NCBI RefSeq assembly: GCF_018397995.1
Contig: NZ_BBQH01000016.1
Coordinates: 124,001-188,000, forward strand
DNA length: 64,000 nucleotides
DNA from: Rhizomonospora bruguierae
Lineage (GTDB): Bacteria > Actinomycetota > Actinomycetes > Mycobacteriales > Micromonosporaceae
Direction of reading: 5' to 3'
Program-made: the position numbers and the translations under genes
In this document: piece by piece, positions 18,763 to 30,860 of the stretch
Numbering within the stretch: the first letter of the stretch is position 1
Layout: each line of letters opens with the position of its first letter
Notes under the pieces: generated by a model
Database searches by the model: none
What the model was told of the DNA's origin: nothing
Seen by the model: only the letters and a program-made list of their open reading frames with translations

Positions 18763-19551
18763 ATGGACGGCGTGGGGATCCGGTCACCGCTGCGCGTCGC
18801 CGAGCTGACCGCGATCGGCGAGCACCAGGCGGCCGCCGCGCTGCTGACCCGCATCTGGCAGGCCGCCTCCCCGGCGCAACTGGTCAGCGCCGACCTGATG
18901 CGCGCCCTGGCCCACTCGGGCAACTACGTCGCCGGCGCCTACCAGGGCAACCGCCTGGTCGGCGCCGCGATCGCCTTCTTCGGCGCCGACCACCTCCACT
19001 CCCACATCACCGGCGTGGACCCCGGCTGCCAGCGCCTCGGCGTCGGCGGCGCCCTCAAGCAGCACCAGCGCGCGTGGGCGCACCGGCGCGGCCTGGCCGA
19101 GATCCGGTGGACCTTCGACCCGCTCGTGCGCCGCAACGCCCGGTTCAACCTGCTCACGCTCGGCGCGGTCGTCCGGGCCTACCTGCCGGACTTCTACGGC
19201 GACCTGGCCGACGCGGTGAACCAGGGCGACGCGTCCGACCGCCTGTACGTGGCGTGGGACGTCCGCGACGCCGCCCCACGCCCGCCGGACACCCTCACCG
19301 GCGCCCGGGTCATCCTGGACGACCTGCACGAGCGCCCGGTCTCGCTGGCCGAGCGCGGCGGCGACCGGGTGGCCGTCGCCGTACCGGCCGATGTGGAGGC
19401 CCTGCGCCGGCGCGACCCCAGGGTCGCCGCGTGGTGGCGGCAGGAGGTCCGCACCGCCCTCGGCGGCGCCCTCGCCGACGGCTACCGCGTCATCGGTTTC
19501 ACCGCCGGCGGTCAGTACCTGCTCAGCCGGTGGCGCCCGCCGTCTACCTGA
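18763..19551 (+). CDS. GNAT-family acetyltransferase-like protein
   Basis: 262 residues. The central block HSHITGVDPGCQRLGVGGAL followed by KQHQRAWA is the acetyl-CoA-binding motif A of the GNAT fold in the predicted COG3375-type subgroup. IRWTFDPLVRRNARFNL and LGAVVRAYLPDFYG are conserved in that subgroup. The acceptor substrate is unknown. The upstream AT-rich patch (18650-18720) separates it from the divergent amidase gene and must carry both promoters; it contains two CCTTCGAT copies. The 3' end overlaps the convergent oxidase gene by 8 bases. Confidence 0.85.
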   Translation: MDGVGIRSPLRVAELTAIGEHQAAAALLTRIWQAASPAQLVSADLMRALAHSGNYVAGAYQGNRLVGAAIAFFGADHLHSHITGVDPGCQRLGVGGALKQHQRAWAHRRGLAEIRWTFDPLVRRNARFNLLTLGAVVRAYLPDFYGDLADAVNQGDASDRLYVAWDVRDAAPRPPDTLTGARVILDDLHERPVSLAERGGDRVAVAVPADVEALRRRDPRVAAWWRQEVRTALGGALADGYRVIGFTAGGQYLLSRWRPPST

Positions 19552-20524
19552 GAACCTCTCCCGCCAGGCTCGCCACATCGGACGCACAGCCCCAGGAGAG
19601 CGTGATGCCGGCGCCCCCGTGGCCGTAGTTGTGCACCACGTGCCCGGCGTCGAGCGGCTCCCGCTCCAGCCGCACGCTGGCCCGGCTCGGCCGCAGCCCG
19701 ACCCGGTGCTCCAGCACCCGGGCCCGCCCCACGCGCGGGTCGATCGCCGCGCACCGGCTGCGGATAGCGTCCGCCACGCGCCGGTCGGGCACCAGGTCGG
19801 TGCGGCCGGGCTCGGCGCTGCCACCCAGCACGAGACGGTCGCCGTGCGGCATGAAGTACACCGGCGTCTCGGACTCGTCGTGCTCGGTGAAGAACTCCTC
19901 GATGCCGGGGTTCTCCACGACCACGATCTGCCCCCGGGTCGGGCTGACCGCGTCGTCCGGGACGAGAGCGCGGGCGGCCACGCCGGTGCAGTTGACCACG
20001 ACGGGGGCCGCCGACAGCGGCTCGGTGAACGACCGGACCGCCCGCCGGCGCACCGGTACGCCGTGCTTGGCGAGATCGTCGACCAGCGCCCGCAGGTGCG
20101 CCGGCATATCGATCATCGGCGCCCGGTACCGCCAGCCGACCGCGTACGGGCTGGGCACCTCGGCGTCGTGGCAGCCGCGGTAGTCGGGCAGCCCGCGCAT
20201 CCACAATGGCGCCTCCAGCGCCGATCGGGAGACCTCCCGCCCGGCGACCTGGCGCACCCCCTGCTCCTCGGTGCGGCCCAGCAGCCAGCGGTAGGTGGCC
20301 CGGCTCCACCCGACCACGCGGGCGTCATCCACCAGGTACGGCGCCCACATCGCCGCGGCGGCGCAGGAGGTGCTCTCCAGCGGTAGATCCTGGGTCCACA
20401 CCTCGACACCGAGATCGGCCGTGGCCAGCGCCAGGGCGCTCGTCAGGCCGGAGACGCCCGCGCCCAGCACGATGACATCGGGGCGACCGGGCACCTTTCG
20501 ACAGTAGGCTATCTCGGTCATCAT
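19544..20524 (-). CDS. D-amino-acid oxidase-like FAD enzyme
   Basis: 326 residues, DAO/DASPO family size. FAD dinucleotide motif DVIVLGAGVSGLTSALAL near the N terminus. Also VVNCTGVAARAL, SPTRGQIVVVENPG, YFMPHGDRLVLGGSAEPG and the C-terminal HNYGHGGAGITLSWGCA that contacts flavin, all typical of D-amino-acid oxidase. It would oxidise a D-amino acid to the keto acid, ammonia and peroxide. Two adjacent ATG codons (20524 and 20521) are possible starts. No ribosome site is seen, so a leaderless transcript is possible. It is divergent from the SCO2521-type gene. Confidence 0.9.
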   Translation of the reverse strand: MMTEIAYCRKVPGRPDVIVLGAGVSGLTSALALATADLGVEVWTQDLPLESTSCAAAAMWAPYLVDDARVVGWSRATYRWLLGRTEEQGVRQVAGREVSRSALEAPLWMRGLPDYRGCHDAEVPSPYAVGWRYRAPMIDMPAHLRALVDDLAKHGVPVRRRAVRSFTEPLSAAPVVVNCTGVAARALVPDDAVSPTRGQIVVVENPGIEEFFTEHDESETPVYFMPHGDRLVLGGSAEPGRTDLVPDRRVADAIRSRCAAIDPRVGRARVLEHRVGLRPSRASVRLEREPLDAGHVVHNYGHGGAGITLSWGCASDVASLAGEVLR

Positions 20525-20581: not shown

Positions 20582-21550
20582 ATGGCCGGCGGTACGGTGG
20601 TGGTCCTCGGCGAGGTCCACACGGGTCTCGTGCAGCACTCCGGCGAGTTGCCGCCGGCGCAGTGCGAACGGGTCCTCCGGTTGCTGGAAGGGGAGCGGGT
20701 GCACGGCTTCCAGCGCCCCATCGCGTACGCCGTGTCGCCGCCGGTGCTGACCGGGGTCGACTGCTCCCTGGCGACCGGGTCGGGGGCCACCCCGCGCGGC
20801 GTCGGCAGCGTCGAGGCGCGGGCCGGCATCACCGGCGGCCGGGTGCTCCAGGGGCGGGCGGTCGCCGCCGTCGTGCGCGCGACCGCGACACGACGGTTGC
20901 CCTGGGCGCACTACCTGGCCCGTCCCGGCCGGGTGGAGGCGATCGGCCGGTGCACCCCCGAGGCCCTCGCCACGGGCTTCCTCGCCGCGCCGGCCGCACC
21001 CTCCACACTCGATCTGACCGCGATCGCCGGCCGGATCGTGGACGAGGTGCAGGCGTCGCCCGTCCTCGACCGGCGGCCCCCGCTTCGCGTCGCCCGGACC
21101 CGGCTGCGCTGGGCGGTGGAGGTGACGGACGCGGCCGAGCCGGAACTCGTGCGGTTGGCGGTCGAGCCGAACCACCGGCGGACCGTCCTGATGCGCGCAC
21201 CGGGCGCGCTGCTGGGGTCGATCGCCGAGTTCTGCGCCGACCTGGCCCTGCACGACTGGCTGCTGACCACCCTGCTCGGCGTGGTGGAGCGCAGCCGGAT
21301 GGGCGCCGGCCACGGCTCCGAGGTCGTGGAACGGCTACGTCCGGCCGTGCAGCACCTGTTGCACCTGTGGATGCCCGTACCCCGCGCCGACCCGGTCGCC
21401 CGGGCGCTCTGGGTCACCGTGGAGCGCCTGGCCGGGGTGGAGCGGCAGTGGGAGGCCACCCGGGACCGCATCCGCGACCAGGTTGCCCTCAGCAACCTCA
21501 CGCTCCTCATGGGTGGCGTGGCGGCCGGGGCGACGGGGGTGGGCAGGTGA
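20582..21550 (+). CDS. SCO2521-family protein (function unknown)
   Basis: 322 residues. The opening GTVVVLGEVHTGLVQHSGEL and the later VDCSLATGSGATPRGVGSV match the actinobacterial SCO2521 family as I know it. It has no recognisable catalytic motif and no membrane segment; the C-terminal third is helical (LLHLWMPVPRADPVARALW). Its stop overlaps the next gene (GTGA), so the two are translationally coupled. The SCO2522-SCO2525-like genes run convergently on the other strand right after. Their conserved grouping suggests one pathway or complex, so far uncharacterised. Confidence 0.8.
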   Translation: MAGGTVVVLGEVHTGLVQHSGELPPAQCERVLRLLEGERVHGFQRPIAYAVSPPVLTGVDCSLATGSGATPRGVGSVEARAGITGGRVLQGRAVAAVVRATATRRLPWAHYLARPGRVEAIGRCTPEALATGFLAAPAAPSTLDLTAIAGRIVDEVQASPVLDRRPPLRVARTRLRWAVEVTDAAEPELVRLAVEPNHRRTVLMRAPGALLGSIAEFCADLALHDWLLTTLLGVVERSRMGAGHGSEVVERLRPAVQHLLHLWMPVPRADPVARALWVTVERLAGVERQWEATRDRIRDQVALSNLTLLMGGVAAGATGVGR

Positions 21551-22539
21551 GCAGGGCGATCGGCGAGACCATGCAGACGATGGCGAGCCGGGCCCGGCTG
21601 TTCCGCAAGATCATGGTGTCGCTGGCGATCGGCACGCTCGCCTACGTGATCACCAACCTGCTTGCCGAGACCGCCGACGAGCCCCAGCTCATCGGGTTGA
21701 CGCTGTCGGTCTTCATCGGTGGCGCCACCCTGGTCATCCAGGTGCTGGTCGACTTCGAACGCCGGTTGGTCGGCGTCGAGGACTCGCACGAGTCACACGC
21801 CGAGCACATGGAGGATCTGGTCAAGGCCGGCTTCGCGAAGATCAACGAGGCGACCGAGCTGTTCAGCCTGGTGGAGGCGTCCGCGCTGCACACCGACGTG
21901 GTGCTGGAACTGGTCCGGCACTCCACCCAGATCAAGGCGAGCGCCCCCCGGCTGGTGCTGGCGTTCGCCCAGGCCGAGATCGGCCGCACCTCCCAGTTCG
22001 TCAAGGAACTCAGCGAGGGCAGCAACGTCAGCTACGACGGCGAGGACCGGGACTGGATGCTCGCCCTGGCCCGCAACGTCCAGTCCAGCATCGACGCCAC
22101 GAGCCTCAGCACGGTGGACGCGGGCGGCCGGGGCTGGATCGACGAGGGGCTCTGGCACAGCGACCTCGGCCAGCGGTACCTGGAGGTACAGCGGCAGGCC
22201 ATCGAGAACGGGGTGCGGATCCGCCGGGCATTCATCATCGACCAGTCGGAGCTGGCCACCGACCCCGGGTTCCTGGAGATCTGCCGGGTTCAGCGGGAGG
22301 TCGGCATCGAGGTGCGCATCCTCGACTCGTCCGCGATGCCGGGGCTGCGCCGCACCTCCCTGTTCGACTTCATCCTCTTCGACGACGTGGTCAGCTACGA
22401 GGTGACCCCGGCGACCCTGGCCGCCGGCAGCGTGCGCCGGGCCATCGTGAATACCCGGATCGAGCTGCGCCCGGAACGCGTCCGCGACCGGATCCAGCGG
22501 TTCAAGGACCTGTGGGCGCTGGCCCACGAGCCCGAGTGA
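21547..22539 (+). CDS. Two-helix membrane protein of the SCO2521-type cluster
   Basis: 330 residues. Two N-terminal transmembrane helices (IMVSLAIGTLAYVITNLLA near 22-40, and LIGLTLSVFIGGATLVIQVLV near 48-68) are followed by a charged, probably coiled stretch and a soluble C-terminal domain (residues about 195-330). That domain has alternating strands and helices (RIRRAFIIDQSEL, EICRVQREVGIEVRILDSS, LFDFILFDDVVSYEVTP), vaguely like phospholipase-D-fold sensor domains but with no HKD motif. GTG start overlaps the upstream stop. Possibly the membrane anchor or sensor of the cluster; no named family assigned. Confidence 0.75.
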   Translation: MSRAIGETMQTMASRARLFRKIMVSLAIGTLAYVITNLLAETADEPQLIGLTLSVFIGGATLVIQVLVDFERRLVGVEDSHESHAEHMEDLVKAGFAKINEATELFSLVEASALHTDVVLELVRHSTQIKASAPRLVLAFAQAEIGRTSQFVKELSEGSNVSYDGEDRDWMLALARNVQSSIDATSLSTVDAGGRGWIDEGLWHSDLGQRYLEVQRQAIENGVRIRRAFIIDQSELATDPGFLEICRVQREVGIEVRILDSSAMPGLRRTSLFDFILFDDVVSYEVTPATLAAGSVRRAIVNTRIELRPERVRDRIQRFKDLWALAHEPE

Positions 22540-22560
22540 GCACCGTGGACGGTCCGCGGC

Positions 22561-23532
22561 TCACCCCGTGAAGACGTAGTCGATCCGGCCGCCCGGCTCC
22601 CGGTCCAGGTCCAGGCCCTCACCCCGGGCCCGGTCGATCACCTGGTCCACCACCGCATCCTCCGGGGCCACCTGCTCCAGGATCGTGCGGACCGCGTGCT
22701 CGGTGGTCAGGAACCGGCGGGGCAGGATCGACAGCGACCGGTACGCGGTGAACGGCGCCGCCTGCGGGTTCAGGCGGATGACCGCGGGGAGTTCGTCCCA
22801 CCGCTCGGGGAGCGCACCCGACCACTCCTGCGGCGTGGCCACCACCTCGCCGCCGTGACGCAGCATGCCCAGGCGCAGCAACTGCCACACCGAGGCCAGG
22901 AACGCGCAGGACCACAGCCGCTCCTCGGCGCGGCCGTTGCCGGCCCGGCTCCACAGTTCCACGTCCACGAAGACCGAGTGCCGGTTGGCGGCGTTCTGCA
23001 CCGGCGGCGCCCACGCGGGCGCGGTGTCCATCGCCGCGGCGGAGCGCACGCTCGGCGAGCGCTGCCCGTTGCTCAGCCAGCCGGTCTCGGCCAGCGTCGG
23101 CCGCCCGCCGGTGGTGCGCGGCGGCGGGTCGGCGACGATCCGCTCCTCGACCAGCCGGGCCAGCGGCGCCCCGTCGGCGTTCGCGCAGGCCGCCTCCCGG
23201 GCCAGGTAGTCGATGCGCAGGCCAGCCTCCTCCGCGGCCGCCAGCAGCGGCGGGATGATCTCGGTGGGCGGGGTGGTGGGGCCGAAGTAGTCGTCGATCA
23301 GGAAGCAGGTGCTGATCCGCGGAGTACGCCTGCCCAGGTCGGCGGCGGCGATCCCGCGGGCCGCCGCCGCCCACGGCGCCACGGTCCGGAAGTGCCGCAG
23401 CAGCGTGTCCGGGCCGGTCAGGAAATCCTCGAAGTACAGGTGCCCCAGCTCGACCGACAGGTGAGCCAGCGGCACCGATCGAACCCGCCGCCGCTCCGCC
23501 GACTCGGCGAAGATCGCCTCCGGGGGCGCCAC
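22561..23532 (-). CDS. SCO2522-family protein (function unknown)
   Basis: 323 residues. Recognisable by VPLAHLSVELGHLYFEDFL near the N terminus and ISTCFLIDDYFG, followed by PPTEIIPPLLAAAEEAGLR, a pattern of the SCO2522 family. The length and lack of membrane segments suggest a cytosolic protein. The acidic LIDDYF strand end hints at a nucleotide- or metal-binding site, but that is inference. I prefer GTG 23532, with GGAAGGG 8 bases upstream and 2 bases after the stop of the preceding gene. ATG at 23550, overlapping that gene, is the alternative. It is the last gene of the leftward operon. Confidence 0.78.
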   Translation of the reverse strand: MAPPEAIFAESAERRRVRSVPLAHLSVELGHLYFEDFLTGPDTLLRHFRTVAPWAAAARGIAAADLGRRTPRISTCFLIDDYFGPTTPPTEIIPPLLAAAEEAGLRIDYLAREAACANADGAPLARLVEERIVADPPPRTTGGRPTLAETGWLSNGQRSPSVRSAAAMDTAPAWAPPVQNAANRHSVFVDVELWSRAGNGRAEERLWSCAFLASVWQLLRLGMLRHGGEVVATPQEWSGALPERWDELPAVIRLNPQAAPFTAYRSLSILPRRFLTTEHAVRTILEQVAPEDAVVDQVIDRARGEGLDLDREPGGRIDYVFTG

Positions 23533-23534
23533 CG

Positions 23535-24452
23535 CTACAACCCTTCCCATGCGGCGTCGTCCACCAGCCGCTCGGCCAACCCGTCGAACGCCTCGGCCGT
23601 GGCCCGGTTCGCGATCTGGGTCAGCGCCACGTCGTCGTCCGAGATCAGTTGCTCGCGCCACTGCAGCACCGGGTCCAGCGGGACGCTGCCCAGCGTGGCG
23701 GTGCGGCCGATCCGGTGCCGGCCGGCGAGCCGCTGGAGGGCGGCGTTGCAGTCCCGCAGCCACGCCACCTGGGCGGCGCGCAGGCCGGCCAGCTCGGCCG
23801 AATTGGGGTCCACGACGGCGGTGCGGACGAACCGGATCGCGTTGCTCAGCCGCTCCCGGTCGTGACCCCGCACGGTCCCGGTGTCGAGGATGCCGCGGTC
23901 GCCGAAGACCAGGTCGGCGGCGGCGATGATGTGCTGCCGGGTCCACCGGTGGAACACCAGCCATCGGCAGGGCACCGCGGCCAGCTTCGGGTCGGCGGTG
24001 GCCGCGAGCACCATGTCGATCGCGTACGACCGGCCGGCGCTGAGGTCCACCAGGCAGAACTCGTACTCCTCGACCATGCGCATGAGCAGCTTCGTGCAGC
24101 GCTCCACGATGACGTCGTCGCTGGGGAACTCGCCACCGCCCACGTCGCCCGGGTAGAGCACCAGGCGGCCGGCCCCCGCGGGCTGGCCGCGCAGCGCGTC
24201 CCGGTCCGACTCGTACCACACGTCCAGGGCGCGTGGTTCGGCCACCTCACCGAGCAGGAACGAGTGCAGCCCACCACCCTTGATGCCCCACACCGCGTCG
24301 TTGATCTCGAAGATCGCCGGCGCCGTCGGCGAGCCGAAGTCGAAGTCGAGGTATGCGGTGTCGCCGCCCTTGAGCGCCCGCCGGTACAGCAGATTACTGC
24401 TGGTGACCGAACGCCCGGTGCCACCCTTGTCGGAGGTCGCGAAGATCAGCAT
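23535..24452 (-). CDS. SCO2523-family variant P-loop protein
   Basis: 305 residues, a ParA/MinD-like SIMIBI fold. It opens MLIFATSDKGGTGRSVTSSN. The deviant-Walker signature lysine Lys9 is kept but the P-loop lysine is Arg14 (GTGRS instead of GVGKT), hence the variant name. YLDFDFGSPTAPAIFEI matches switch I, and EFCLVDLSAGRSYAIDMVL the Walker B/switch II region. It may bind nucleotide without fast hydrolysis. Start and upstream stop share one base (TGATG), so it is tightly coupled to the SCO2524-type gene. Likely a switch or scaffold protein of the cluster. Confidence 0.85.
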   Translation of the reverse strand: MLIFATSDKGGTGRSVTSSNLLYRRALKGGDTAYLDFDFGSPTAPAIFEINDAVWGIKGGGLHSFLLGEVAEPRALDVWYESDRDALRGQPAGAGRLVLYPGDVGGGEFPSDDVIVERCTKLLMRMVEEYEFCLVDLSAGRSYAIDMVLAATADPKLAAVPCRWLVFHRWTRQHIIAAADLVFGDRGILDTGTVRGHDRERLSNAIRFVRTAVVDPNSAELAGLRAAQVAWLRDCNAALQRLAGRHRIGRTATLGSVPLDPVLQWREQLISDDDVALTQIANRATAEAFDGLAERLVDDAAWEGL

Positions 24453-26281
24453 CAGGCGGGACCCGTCGCCTTCTGCCGGGCGGCGGCCAGCCGATCCAAC
24501 TCGCGTAACACCTCGGCGGCGAGCACCGCCGCGGTGCCCGGCCGGTTGCCCATCAGCTCGTGCGCGCGACGCAGCGTGGACCGGGCTCCGTGCAGTGCCG
24601 CGCTCATCGCCGGCCCCGCCTCGGCGGAGACGCTCAGCAACTCCTGGTCGAACAGGTGGTCCGCTTCGGCGAGCAGGTCGGTGGCGTAACCGGCGAGCGC
24701 CTGGCTGCGCAGCGGCGCCGTGCCGACCAGGCCGGCCGCCGCGATGAGGCTCTCCACCACCCGCTCGGTGTAGTACCAGGACGGCAGCTGGACGTCCTGG
24801 TCGGCGGCCGCCCCGGGCGTCTGGTCCCACAGGTGCAGGTACTGCCCGCTGGTGAAGCGCCGGGCGCGCAGGTGTTCCCAGGTCCGGTCGGCGAGGGTGA
24901 CCACCTGGCCGCGTAGCTCGATGTGACGCAGCAGTTGGGCCACCAGCACGGTCTGCTTGAGCAGCAGCGGCGAGAAGTCCGCCACCAGCCAGTGCAGTCG
25001 CTCCCCGCCGGCCGCCTCCGTGCCCTCCAGGGCGAGCCGGAACCCGGGGGAGTGTAGGGCGAGCGCCGGGTCGTTGAACAGCGGGCGGCGGGTGATGCGG
25101 GCGCGCTGGGCCAGTTCGGCCAGCACCTCGCCGACCCGTTGCACCTCGGATTCGGTCGGCTGCCCCCGGGTCAGGTCCTGCACCACGATCGAGGTGACCA
25201 GCAGGCTCAGGTAGTCGGAGTCCACCTTGTCCACCGTGCGCCACGGCAGGTCCTCCAGCGGCCACCGGCCCGAGCCGAAGCGGCCGACCTTCGACCAGTA
25301 CGACTGGGTGAGATCCCACCGCAGCTGGAGCGACCGGGACAGCCGGTTCTGCTCCTCGTCGAGCAGGCCGAGCAGGCGGGTGCGCTCGGAGAACAGATTC
25401 CGGATGCAGTCCAGCGCCACCACCGTGAAGTACAGGTACGGCGCGGACTGGGCCACCCCGTCGCGCTGCTCGCCCACGTCCGCGGTGGTATCCACCTTCG
25501 GCGCGTTCGCCACCAGACCCCAGGACCAGCCGCACTGGAACAGCTTGTTGTCGTTGTCGATGTCGGTGACCTGGCCGCTGCCCAGGGTGATGTCCCGTAC
25601 CCCCGCCTTGACCTGGCGCAGCTCCCGGTGCAGGGACTCCACCACCTGCCGGGTCGGCAGGCCCTGCTGGTTCACCGTCTCCAGCAGCGCCTGGCCCTCA
25701 GGCGATCCGACGTCGAACACGTCGACCGAGAAGCTGCGCAGCAGCCCGACCATCGCCGCGCTGAGCCGGCGGCTGGCCATCGACTCCAGCGCGTCCACCT
25801 CGGACACCAGGTCGGGGCGTCGGACCACGGTGCGGAACACGCGGGTGAAGCCGATCGTGGCCAGCGACAGCCGGATCGCGACGGAGAAGGAGTCCACAAC
25901 GTCGAGGGCACGCTGCGCCGCGGTCGGCGGCACCTGGCTGGCCGCGGCGAAGTAGGTGCCGCCGGAGAACACCGGTGTCTTGCTGTCGTCGGTGTAGGTG
26001 CTGAAGTATTCGGTGAGCCGGCGAACCAGCAGCCGCGGGATCTCCACGCTGTCGCCCAGTTCGGCCAGGGCGTCCAGCACGTCATCAGCGGTCTCGTCCG
26101 GCTGGTCCAGCTTGAACGACGGGATCTCGGTGGCCGGACCGAGCAGGCAGAGCAACTGCTCGGCGTCGCTGATCGAATTGCGCCCGTGCCGGCCGCCCCA
26201 CGACCAGCCGCCGGCGGGGACCGCGGAGCGCGCCATCGCGCGCCACACCTCGAGCAGCTGCTGACGCGGTTGAATCCACAT
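24452..26281 (-). CDS. SCO2524-family protein (large, function unknown)
   Basis: 609 residues from ATG 26281; an in-frame GTG at 26299 is the alternative. It begins MWIQPRQQLLEVWRAMA and continues WSWGGRHGRNSISDAEQLLC, features I associate with the SCO2524 family. The rest is mostly helical, with no membrane segment or signal peptide. DAEQLLCLLGPATEIPSF and SAPYLYFTVVALDCIRNLF are conserved-looking blocks. It is the largest protein of the cluster, sits between the methyltransferase and the variant P-loop gene, and is probably a structural or substrate component. Confidence 0.8.
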   Translation of the reverse strand: MWIQPRQQLLEVWRAMARSAVPAGGWSWGGRHGRNSISDAEQLLCLLGPATEIPSFKLDQPDETADDVLDALAELGDSVEIPRLLVRRLTEYFSTYTDDSKTPVFSGGTYFAAASQVPPTAAQRALDVVDSFSVAIRLSLATIGFTRVFRTVVRRPDLVSEVDALESMASRRLSAAMVGLLRSFSVDVFDVGSPEGQALLETVNQQGLPTRQVVESLHRELRQVKAGVRDITLGSGQVTDIDNDNKLFQCGWSWGLVANAPKVDTTADVGEQRDGVAQSAPYLYFTVVALDCIRNLFSERTRLLGLLDEEQNRLSRSLQLRWDLTQSYWSKVGRFGSGRWPLEDLPWRTVDKVDSDYLSLLVTSIVVQDLTRGQPTESEVQRVGEVLAELAQRARITRRPLFNDPALALHSPGFRLALEGTEAAGGERLHWLVADFSPLLLKQTVLVAQLLRHIELRGQVVTLADRTWEHLRARRFTSGQYLHLWDQTPGAAADQDVQLPSWYYTERVVESLIAAAGLVGTAPLRSQALAGYATDLLAEADHLFDQELLSVSAEAGPAMSAALHGARSTLRRAHELMGNRPGTAAVLAAEVLRELDRLAAARQKATGPA

Positions 26282-26302
26282 GGGCTGGCGCTCACCCACC
26301 CG

Positions 26303-27103
26303 TCAGGCTCGGGTCCTGCCCGCCTTTCCGAGGGCCACGATCATTCCCGCATACCCGTCCCGCAACGGCTTGTGGGAGCGGATCGCGCGAATGTCCAGGT
26401 CCTCGACGAGTGGGGCAAGAGTCTCTGCGATGTCGACCTCGTTCACGGCCACGGCCGGGAACCTCAGGCGGTCTACATAATAGCCCGCCGAGTCATGCAT
26501 GAAGGCCGCCGCGAATGGCGCGCCGGGGCGCAGGGCGCCGATGAAGCGCCCCACCGCCATCTTGAATTCGCTTACTTGATCTGATATGGACTCCGCGACG
26601 AAGAACATTGTCGCCAGATCCCACCGGCGTTCGGGTAGCTGGTAGAGGTCGCCCTGCTCGACCCGGCCCTTGTGGAGCAGCGCCTCGCGGGGATCGGATA
26701 TCCGATCGTAGGCGGGCTTCTCCGAGAGCACCTGCCAATACGCGTCCCAGACGGACGAGTATCCCTTCCGCTGCTCCTGCAGCCACGCCACGTTGGCCGC
26801 CCCGCGCTCCAGCAGCGTCAGCTCCCGGCAGAAGGGCACCATGGTCAGGGCCGGGTAGAGGTTCGAACCGGCGCCGACGTCGACCCCGCGCTCGACCGGC
26901 CGCTCCGGGTCCAGTACGGCGGAGAAGTAATCCCGCACGGTACGCAGGATTTCAAGATCGTCGTCCCGCAGTTCGGCGTAATTCTGGTGGAAATACCATC
27001 GTGGATCGAACCGATCCCACGGGTAGCTGCCGTTCGCCTCGGCCGGTTTGGCCCCGCCGCCGGGCGGCGCGACCGTCACCCCGCGCGTCGGTGTTCTGGG
27101 CAT
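26303..27103 (-). CDS. SCO2525-family SAM-dependent methyltransferase
   Basis: 266 residues. WDRFDPRWYFHQNYAELRDD at the N terminus and GVDVGAGSNLYPALTMVPF (SAM motif I, residues about 73-91) mark an NNMT/PNMT-like class I methyltransferase. LATMFFVAESISDQVSEF is the substrate side of the fold and FAAAFMHDSAGYYVD matches post-motif III. The substrate is unknown, perhaps one of the cluster's own proteins. GAGGAG lies 8 bases before ATG. First gene of the leftward four-gene operon. Its DNA is visibly richer in A/T than its neighbours. Confidence 0.87.
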   Translation of the reverse strand: MPRTPTRGVTVAPPGGGAKPAEANGSYPWDRFDPRWYFHQNYAELRDDDLEILRTVRDYFSAVLDPERPVERGVDVGAGSNLYPALTMVPFCRELTLLERGAANVAWLQEQRKGYSSVWDAYWQVLSEKPAYDRISDPREALLHKGRVEQGDLYQLPERRWDLATMFFVAESISDQVSEFKMAVGRFIGALRPGAPFAAAFMHDSAGYYVDRLRFPAVAVNEVDIAETLAPLVEDLDIRAIRSHKPLRDGYAGMIVALGKAGRTRA

Positions 27104-27378: not shown

Positions 27379-30085
<2,707 letters not shown>

Positions 30086-30089
<4 letters not shown>

Positions 30090-30802
30090 CGCACCACCCC
30101 GGTGAGAACGGCGAACGGCACGGCCAGATAGCCGCCGCAGAGCAGCACGGACAGGGCGAGGGCGAAGGCCCGGGCCCGCCGTTCCCCGCGGGAGGTCTGC
30201 TGGCCGAGCGTGCGCAGCGCGCTGTAGACGCCGTGCCGCAGGTGGAACCCGATCGCCACGACGGCGAGGCCGTAGAACAGCGTGACGTACCAGCGGCCCG
30301 GGGCGAAGTCCGCGACCACGGTGGCGTACGGGTTCGCCGGGTCGGCGACCGGGTTCAGGTGGCCGGTGGTCAGGTCGAGGATGTGGTAGATCACGAAGAG
30401 CACGATGATCACGCCGCCCCAGCGCATCGTGCGGGCCGCGTAGCTGCCCCGTACCGGCCTGCGGTGCGCATACCGGACCGGCCGCGCCCGGCGGGCGCGG
30501 AGCGTGAGCGCGGTCGCCGCCCAGATGTGCCCGCCGACCGCGAGCAGCAGCACCACCCGCTGGATCCACAGGTACGCGGTCTGCGGGAGCACCGGGTCGC
30601 CGAGTCGGCGCAGCCACTGGGCGTACTCGCCGAACGCGCTCGCCCCGGCGAACACCTTCAGGTTGCCGAGCATGTGGGCGACGAGGAACAGCACCAGGAG
30701 GATGCCGGTCGCCGCCATCACCACCTTCTGCCCCACGGTGGAGGGCCCTTTGGCCCTGGCGTTCTGGGCCGGGGTCGGTCTGGCTCGGGTCAGTAGCGCC
30801 AC
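30086..30802 (-). CDS. sdhC: Succinate dehydrogenase cytochrome b subunit
   Basis: 238 residues with five hydrophobic helices, the single membrane anchor of B-type succinate dehydrogenases. Heme-ligand histidines are visible in [42 protein letters not shown] and [15 protein letters not shown] took GTG 30802 ([13 protein letters not shown]) as start. TTGGAC and CACTCT lie correctly spaced just before it, so the mRNA may be leaderless. A frame beginning at ATG 30844 is the alternative. First gene of the operon, divergent from lysR. Confidence 0.9.
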
Positions 30803-30860
30803 GCACAGAGAGTGGCCCGGCCGGTCACAAGTCGTCCAATGCATGAAGGTCGCAGTGTTG

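What the first reader, a model, noticed from the sequence alone, without database searches (positions are those of the whole stretch)
20582..27103. Complete SCO2521-SCO2525-type cluster of unknown function with a membrane companion
Six genes lie in two convergent runs: SCO2521-like plus a two-helix membrane protein rightwards, and SCO2525 (methyltransferase), SCO2524, SCO2523 (variant P-loop) and SCO2522 leftwards. Start/stop overlaps or gaps of a few bases occur within each run. The families are known only by locus tags. A methyltransferase, a disabled ParA-like switch, a large helical protein and a membrane protein together look like a regulated assembly or signalling complex. This is my best candidate for an undescribed system.
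Basis: partly seen in the sequence, partly recalled or inferred. Interest (0 to 1): 0.85.

Follow-up and report, generated by a model that had tools for sequence, protein, structure and literature searches.

The report
Actinobacterial switch module with exchangeable output protein
Soil bacteria of the Streptomyces and Micromonospora kind share an unexplained set of neighbouring genes whose four-gene core is usually paired with a membrane protein or, in relatives, with a different output protein, which suggests a stress or immune-like switch that can now be tested.

Summary
In detail: all five SCO2521-2525 families and a two-helix membrane protein (MP) are present, tightly packed. In 394 genomes of the class, MP was found in 32, all among the 37 with SCO2522; four of the other five carry a channel-like protein beside SCO2521 instead. 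In the window's family linkage is looser: some MPs stand alone, and five genomes carry MP, SCO2525 and a D-amino-acid oxidase as a detached trio. In 23 of 80 family loci a DUF4062-NACHT-HEAT protein takes MP's place. MP's soluble domain has a phospholipase-D fold without catalytic HKD; SCO2522 has a class I aminoacyl-tRNA-synthetase-like fold without HIGH/KMSKS; SCO2523's P-loop lysine is arginine in 41 of 41. Best reading: a chromosomal core controlling an exchangeable, mostly membrane-bound output, probably in stress or conflict. Main rival: a growth/development regulator, since an SCO2525 phenotype is cited in print. Defence-island, plasmid and phage tests were negative. The single-system claim is strong; the function is inferred.

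The parts
19544..20524 (-). D-amino-acid oxidase (DAAO-type FAD protein), seventh gene, divergent from SCO2521
   Evidence: PF01266 131.5 bits (cut-off 27.9); PDB DAAO E 1e-46; window-type oxidase in 45 of 80 family loci; with MP and SCO2525 in 5 detached trios
20582..21550 (+). SCO2521 family protein, core gene, fold not modelled
   Evidence: NF040565 353.5 bits; 83 of 83 loci
21547..22539 (+). Membrane companion (MP): two TM helices, long helix, C-terminal pseudo-phospholipase-D domain
   Evidence: model pLDDT 86.3; Foldseek E 2.9e-8 to Nuc; VIA Z 15.0 to NucT; HKD positions lost; hydrophobic segments
22561..23538 (-). SCO2522 family protein, class I aminoacyl-tRNA-synthetase-like fold
   Evidence: NF040566 445.9 bits; model pLDDT 84.9; VIA Z 12.3 to ArgRS 2zue; Foldseek alone not significant
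23535..24452 (-). SCO2523 family variant P-loop protein, KGGTGR in place of KGGxGK
   Evidence: NF040564 488.2 bits; KGGTGR 41 of 41
24452..26299 (-). SCO2524 family protein, core gene, no relative outside the family found
   Evidence: NF040567 854.1 bits; best PDB profile match E 0.061
26303..27103 (-). SCO2525 family SAM-dependent methyltransferase (NNMT/PNMT/TEMT type), optional
   Evidence: NF040568 326.7 bits; PF01234 31.5 bits (cut-off 25)

Best explanation
A chromosomal four-protein core (SCO2524, SCO2523, SCO2522, SCO2521) senses or integrates a cellular state and controls an exchangeable output protein usually encoded beside it. In this window the output is a two-TM protein whose soluble domain is a phospholipase-D fold that has lost its catalytic HKD, so it is more likely a ligand- or partner-binding domain that gates or positions the membrane helices. 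SCO2523, a MinD/ParA-like protein with the P-loop lysine replaced by arginine, would act as a nucleotide-dependent or nucleotide-locked switch; SCO2524 and SCO2521 would be scaffold or sensor parts; SCO2522, with an aminoacyl-tRNA-synthetase-like fold, would bind an amino acid, nucleotide or tRNA-like ligand. The methyltransferase and D-amino-acid oxidase (in other lineages an acetyltransferase or a ThiO-like oxidase) would tune an amine or amino-acid ligand. When triggered, the output stops growth by acting on the membrane or, in the NACHT variant, by NAD depletion. Shown: linkage, exchange, predicted folds, motif losses. Inferred: sensing, switching, gating, growth arrest, purpose (stress or conflict).
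For: Co-occurrence: SCO2522 in 37 of 394 class genomes; MP at E<=1e-15 in 32 of 394 drawn the same way, all 32 among those 37, so none found in the 357 without SCO2522 (the tool scored only its 5 best candidates per genome). Four of the five without MP carry a channel-like protein beside SCO2521; that profile, built from those four, hits no other of the 394. MP lies within 100 bases of a core gene in 97 of 110 distinct MP loci and stays in the cluster when it moves (between 23 and 22 in L136, L142, L144; between 25 and 24 in L129). In 80 loci of the window's family: MP 38, DUF4062-NACHT-HEAT 23, another 2TM protein 1, none recognised 18; MP and NACHT together in one locus 0 of 196 loci (some genomes counted twice). 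On a tree of 164 SCO2523 proteins the minimum changes are NACHT 4, c92 2, channel 1 (FastTree, support not assessed). NACHT genes: Walker A in 29 of 29; DUF4062 is reported as a TIR-like NADase in antiphage defence (PMC13174449). MP. SCO2522. SCO2523.
Against: No defence signature: PADLOC gives no hit to the six window proteins at E<=1 nor to the oxidase and variant proteins at E<=0.01; flanks are not richer in defence genes than control stretches (8 member-hits for 95 flank proteins, 15 for 95 controls); no SCO2523 in 72,556 plasmid records (E<=1e-30) or 50,697 phage records (E<=1e-10). Neighbourhoods are alike within genera, unlike mobile defence. An SCO2525 phenotype in growth and development is cited, which fits a housekeeping or developmental role. 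MP is not strictly bound to the core in the window's family: hits in 4 of 66 genomes without SCO2524 (2 strong, 2 weak) and detached copies in others. Four of 22 NACHT-type genomes keep MP elsewhere, so exchange is not always replacement. 18 of 80 family loci have no recognised output protein, as do 4 of 80 named and 1 of 36 class-sample loci. Foldseek alone found no significant match for SCO2522 (best E 0.18).
Confidence: 0.42

Rival explanations
1. A growth and development regulator of filamentous actinobacteria: the core and membrane protein form a ParA/MinD-like positioning or polarity complex used in hyphal growth or sporulation.
For: Passages read: PMC11472566 reports operon sco2521-sco2526 in the HupS regulon and calls SCO2525 necessary for normal growth; PMC6344877 gives it a morphogenetic role; PMC3017869 names it together with metH mutagenesis. 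MinD/ParA-like N-terminus plus membrane protein. Most carriers named belong to genera that I recall as filamentous. Alike context within genera, no plasmid or phage copies found.
Against: Patchy: 37 of 394 class genomes, 84 of 150 in the window's family, so not required for filamentous growth. The output slot can hold an NLR-like protein with a DUF4062 domain or a channel-like protein, unexpected for a polarity complex. Rhodococcus rhodnii (L106) carries it.
Confidence: 0.3
2. A small-molecule pathway: SCO2522 activates or transfers an amino acid, SCO2525 methylates, the D-amino-acid oxidase or acetyltransferase tailors or degrades; MP senses or passes on the product.
For: Class I aaRS-like fold of SCO2522, with the amino-acid ligase MshC among the matches (Z 9.6); methyltransferase family PF01234; DAAO, ThiO-like oxidases (two examples scanned) or GNATs in the neighbourhood; the trio of MP, SCO2525 and DAAO detached from the core in 5 genomes.
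Against: HxGH pattern in 1 of 47 and KMSKS-like pattern in 0 of 47; no sequence-level match to ArgRS or MshC profiles. SCO2525 not found in 33 of 83 loci as held, some of which end near the cluster. MP has no Pfam transporter match.
Confidence: 0.15
3. A true antiphage defence system that has simply not been annotated.
For: Exchangeable outputs of two-TM, channel-like and DUF4062-NACHT types; DUF4062 NADases act in antiphage defence (PMC13174449, abstract and passages); patchy species distribution.
Against: No PADLOC match, no defence-island enrichment, no plasmid or phage copies found, growth phenotype cited for SCO2525 without phage.
Confidence: 0.18

Closest known systems
NCBIfam families SCO2521-SCO2525 (NF040565, NF040566, NF040564, NF040567, NF040568)
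   Same: All five window proteins exceed the curated cut-offs.
   Different: The models name families only; MP matches no NCBIfam model, nor do the c92 and channel-like alternatives reach one.
Conflict systems of multicellular prokaryotes (Kaur et al. 2020, PMC7159879; passages and section 24 read)
   Same: Predicted inactive MinD/ParA-like domains, STAND-type ATPases and two-TM outputs around a conserved core, in actinobacteria among others.
   Different: No vWA, MoxR or GAP1-type Pfam hit in the window proteins; the SCO2521-2525 tags do not occur in that paper (search).
Swarozyc, DUF4062 TIR-like NADase (PMC13174449, preprint; abstract, sections 6 and 8, passages)
   Same: The NACHT variant begins with DUF4062 (PF13271 78.1 bits, cut-off 24.7, one example scanned).
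   Different: The window has no DUF4062; in relatives it is fused to a NACHT-like NTPase (PF05729 24.9 bits, below its cut-off of 26.7; NPHP3_N 27.1, above) and HEAT repeats and sits beside the SCO252x core.
Pseudo-phospholipase-D domains (TrmB sugar-binding domain 2f5t, FAM83B 5lzk)
   Same: Fold of the MP C-terminal domain (Z 12.3 and 13.9), HKD lost in MP. That these two lack an active HKD is recalled.
   Different: MP is anchored by two TM helices; ligand unknown.
Class I aminoacyl-tRNA synthetases and MshC
   Same: SCO2522 model matches their catalytic-domain fold (Z 12.3 ArgRS, 9.6 MshC).
   Different: No HIGH or KMSKS pattern, only 325 aa, no sequence-profile match.
MinD/ParA/Mrp P-loop proteins
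   Same: N-terminal deviant Walker A with signature lysine.
   Different: Second lysine is arginine in 41 of 41.

Membership tests
SCO2521-2525 NCBIfam families | Score above curated cut-off | tested here: met
   Five of five
Phospholipase D (HKD) enzymes | PLD fold | tested here: met
   Predicted model: Foldseek E 2.9e-8, VIA Z 15.0, rmsd 2.8 over 141
Phospholipase D (HKD) enzymes | HxKx4D catalytic motif | tested here: not met
   Taking D279 as the Asp of HKD (my assignment), the His column is mostly L/M/V and the Lys column is Asp in 43 of 43; 1 of 43 proteins has the pattern HxKx4[DE] anywhere
DUF6879 (PF21806) | Score above gathering cut-off | tested here: not met
   17.8 bits against 23.9 for the window protein
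Class I aminoacyl-tRNA synthetase | Catalytic-domain fold | tested here: met
   Predicted model: VIA Z 12.3, rmsd 3.4 over 210; all 50 listed entries are class I aaRS or MshC; Foldseek alone not significant
Class I aminoacyl-tRNA synthetase | HIGH and KMSKS motifs | tested here: not met
   HxGH 1 of 47, KMSKS-like 0 of 47; an E-x-G-H pattern is in 47 of 47 but lies in a predicted strand
ParA/MinD deviant Walker A ATPases | Signature lysine of KGG | tested here: met
   Invariant K10 in 41 of 41
ParA/MinD deviant Walker A ATPases | P-loop lysine (GKT/S) | tested here: not met
   Arg in 41 of 41
D-amino-acid oxidase | DAO family score and similarity to solved DAAOs | tested here: met
   PF01266 131.5 bits; PDB E 1e-46
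Known antiphage defence systems | Match to PADLOC models | tested here: not met
   0 of 6 window proteins at E<=1; 0 of 10 oxidase, variant and GNAT proteins at E<=0.01
Known antiphage defence systems | Location in defence islands | tested here: not met
   20 family loci only: 8 member-hits for 95 of 160 flank proteins, 15 for 95 of 161 control proteins
Known antiphage defence systems | Protects against phage | not testable with these tools
   Needs plaque assays
vWA/MoxR and GAP1 conflict systems | Their core domains | tested here: not met
   No such Pfam hit at E<=1 in the six window proteins; that Pfam holds models for all of these domains is recalled

The most novel reading that the evidence does not exclude
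A messenger-based switch that does not use nucleotides as messenger: the aaRS-fold protein SCO2522, gated by the variant P-loop protein SCO2523, makes or captures an amino-acid-derived messenger; SCO2525 methylates it; the D-amino-acid oxidase or acetyltransferase removes it; and the pseudo-PLD domain of the two-TM protein, or a NACHT protein with a NADase domain, receives it and arrests the cell. The cited growth phenotype of SCO2525 would then come from an unrestrained output protein.
Probability: 0.12. Interest if true: 0.92.

Novelty: categorically new. Interest (0 to 1): 0.72.

Why it matters
I found no known system that shares this core, yet it is in 84 of 150 genomes searched in the window's family and includes a gene with a cited growth phenotype in the model Streptomyces coelicolor. 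The exchange of a membrane protein for a channel-like or an NLR-like protein makes an open puzzle, what the SCO2521-2526 operon does, directly testable by asking whether the growth defect depends on the output protein. If true, it would tie an immune-type output to growth control in multicellular bacteria. 'Categorically new' refers to the composition of the core, not to a proven function.

Tried and rejected
Two-TM protein with a glyoxalase (VOC) domain next to SCO2521 in the 14 family loci L253-L266: looked like another output type, but full-length relatives also occur in genomes without an SCO2524 hit (for example G686 and G647), so it is taken as a chromosomal neighbour. I read six of the 14 loci. 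This shows the test can reject.

Homology of SCO2522 to ArgRS or MshC at sequence level: hhalign probability below 1 percent (rough alignments, 12 of 20 ArgRS and 19 of 20 MshC loci passed my filter, some rows over-long), so only the fold is claimed. Relation between SCO2522 and SCO2521: none. PDB profile searches with SCO2521, SCO2522 and SCO2524 gave nothing convincing. The cyclodipeptide-synthase idea (3oqh, Foldseek E 0.79) was left aside: it is not among the 50 listed VIA entries.

Single oxidase family: rejected. L077 and L049 carry a ThiO-like oxidase, while the window's family has the DAAO type; earlier pooled counts mix both.

HExxH (FxSxx) link in the own genome: no TIGR04267 match. 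Defence-island enrichment: none seen. Plasmid and phage copies: none in those collections, although one genome record, L088, is titled a plasmid.

Print searches: locus tags, family names and KGGVGR/DUF6879, theme searches. Gehring et al. 2004 was not held; I know it from citing passages and recall.

Rows dropped: alignments used a non-redundant subset; from those lists I left out one SCO2521, one SCO2523 and four SCO2524 rows that looked fused, over-long or truncated. 80 loci were fetched for 79 of the 84 SCO2524-positive family genomes; not fetched were the window's own, G575, G641, G655 and G669. The tree keeps one of each identical SCO2523 of at least 280 aa. Several genomes are in more than one locus set.
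Full report
What is there. The window lies in a draft genome of 6.7 Mb in 182 contigs. All five SCO2521-2525 families are present above their curated cut-offs, in two convergent runs, with a two-helix membrane protein (MP) overlapping the end of SCO2521 by 4 bases.

Survey of neighbourhoods. A genome scan with SCO2523 kept the best 80 of 308 relatives; with three loci from a phylum search this made 83 loci, all found through SCO2523. By iterative profiles SCO2521, 2522 and 2524 were found in 83 of 83, MP in 70, SCO2525 in 50; some loci end near the cluster. Two layouts dominate: all genes one way, 2525-2524-2523-2522-2521-MP, or the 2521-MP pair inverted as in the window (58 and 50 of 108 distinct MP loci). 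MP lies within 100 bases of a core gene in 97 of 110 distinct MP loci and within 300 in 108. It keeps to the cluster when it moves.

Linkage test on genomes not chosen by the cluster. In 394 genomes drawn evenly from the class, SCO2522 is in 37. The MP profile at E<=1e-15 is in 32 of 394 drawn the same way, with the same handles where listed, and all 32 are among the 37; none was found in the 357 without SCO2522. The tool scored only its 5 best candidates per genome there. Of the five without MP, four carry instead a 269-286 aa protein beside SCO2521 with C-terminal hydrophobic helices and a pore-loop-like segment; its profile, built from those four, hits no other genome of the 394. 'Channel-like' is my reading of the sequence: no Pfam match supports it. 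The fifth genome (L133) has no recognised companion.

In the window's own family the picture is looser. SCO2524 is in 84 of 150 genomes and 30 of 44 genera. Eighty loci from 79 of these genomes hold: MP 38, a DUF4062-NACHT-HEAT protein 23, another two-TM protein (c92) 1, none of these 18. Over all sets 29 NACHT genes were called (some from one genome twice), 1392-1475 aa, each with a Walker A and an SIT[EH]LE[YF] motif (28 by pattern, one by eye); in the one scanned, DUF4062 and HEAT are clear, the NACHT model itself is just under its cut-off (24.9 against 26.7 bits) and NPHP3_N just over. MP is in 51 of 150 family genomes: 47 of 84 with SCO2524 and 4 of 66 without, two of the four weak (15 candidates scored per genome). 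Some copies lie far from the core. In five genomes (L287, L288, L289, L296, L297) a detached MP sits with SCO2525 and the D-amino-acid oxidase as a trio; others stand alone (L290-L295, L299). Four of the trio genomes have NACHT-type core loci, so of 22 NACHT-type genomes 4 keep MP elsewhere and 18 have none at E<=1e-15; G610 (c92-type) and G595 (no companion) also have MP elsewhere. The trio is the best evidence that the oxidase belongs to the system: MP, methyltransferase and oxidase occur together without the core.

Accessory enzymes. The window-type oxidase is found in 45 of 80 family loci, 30 of 80 named loci and 0 of 36 class-sample loci (E<=1e-20; the profile was built from 23 of the clustered genes). 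In Microbispora and its relatives a different oxidase of about 400 aa sits convergent to MP; the one scanned (L077) and one in a metagenome bin (L049) are ThiO-like. In Streptomyces, Frankia and others a GNAT acetyltransferase lies near the cluster: 13 of 80 named, 26 of 36 class-sample, 0 of 80 family loci; oxidase and GNAT together in 1 of 196. Because each lineage tends to have one type, these are few independent events.

Exchange. MP and NACHT never share a locus (0 of 196 loci). Any recognised companion is present in 76 of 80 named, 35 of 36 class-sample and 62 of 80 family loci. On a FastTree tree of 164 distinct SCO2523 proteins the minimum number of changes is 4 for NACHT, 2 for c92, 1 for the channel-like protein and 8 for 'none'; far fewer than shuffled labels for NACHT, so lineage-bound, but more than one event. 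Branch support was not assessed.

Structures. MP (mean pLDDT 86.3): helices 2-42 and 48-111 carry the two hydrophobic segments, then residues 156-330 form a phospholipase-D fold (Foldseek E 2.9e-8 to Nuc; VIA Z 15.0, rmsd 2.8, 141 aligned to NucT). D274, F278 and D279 are invariant in 43 of 43; taking D279 as the aspartate of HxKx4D, histidine and lysine are gone. TrmB's sugar-binding domain has this fold too (Z 12.3). SCO2522 (pLDDT 84.9): Foldseek finds nothing significant (best E 0.18), but VIA-align gives Z 12.3, rmsd 3.4 over 210 residues to an arginyl-tRNA synthetase, and all 50 listed entries are class I synthetases or MshC. HIGH and KMSKS are missing, sequence profiles do not match: a fold statement, not membership. 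SCO2523: KGGTGR in 41 of 41. SCO2521 and SCO2524 were not modelled.

Literature. At least one of the five locus tags occurs in three held papers, and only SCO2521 and SCO2525 do. PMC11472566 (passage) lists an operon sco2521-sco2526 in the HupS regulon and calls SCO2525 necessary for normal growth, citing Gehring et al. 2004 (reference seen; paper not held; I recall effects on colony growth and development). PMC6344877 (passage) gives it a morphogenetic role and PMC3017869 (passage) names it with metH mutagenesis. DUF4062 is reported as a TIR-like NADase in antiphage defence (PMC13174449, preprint; abstract, sections 6 and 8 and passages). PMC7159879 (passages and section 24) describes MinD/ParA-like domains predicted inactive in conflict systems of multicellular bacteria. 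Family and genus traits such as 'filamentous' are recalled.

Tests that went against a defence reading. No PADLOC match. Flank genes of 20 family loci are not enriched: 8 member-hits for 95 of 160 flank proteins, 15 for 95 of 161 control proteins from the same 20 genomes about 1 Mb away. No SCO2523 in plasmid or phage collections. Neighbourhoods are alike within genera.

Judgement. That this is one system with a membrane component is strong. That the output is exchangeable is well supported, with the exceptions told above. That the core switches the output and that the output arrests growth is inference from the kinds of protein in the slot. The choice between stress/conflict, development and small-molecule chemistry is open; the double-deletion test under next steps separates them.

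Noticed in passing
L045-L048, L052, L068 and 23 family loci: DUF4062-NACHT-HEAT proteins of 1392-1475 aa sit inside or beside the SCO252x core; NLR-like candidates.
   Followed up: partly
L287, L288, L289, L296, L297: A detached trio of MP, SCO2525 methyltransferase and D-amino-acid oxidase without the core.
   Followed up: partly
L253-L266: Two-TM protein with a C-terminal VOC/glyoxalase domain next to SCO2521, near ndk; relatives also present in genomes without the cluster.
   Followed up: yes
L060:11896-12648: An extra methyltransferase-like protein of 250 aa (by eye) between SCO2522 and MP.
   Followed up: no
L033:9702-10511, L141, L145, L146: Channel-like protein family without Pfam match, seen only beside this cluster in 394 genomes.
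   Followed up: partly
G000:C90:14730-16301 and G000:C13:172144-173703: The window's genome has two arginyl-tRNA synthetase genes over the cut-off, as do several relatives.
   Followed up: no
L088: Cluster in a record titled 'plasmid unnamed' (Sphaerisporangium sp. TRM90804), the only plasmid title among the 80 named loci.
   Followed up: no
window 27379-30844: Next to SCO2525 lie genes that read like the iron-sulfur and flavoprotein subunits of a succinate dehydrogenase or fumarate reductase (by eye, not scanned).
   Followed up: no
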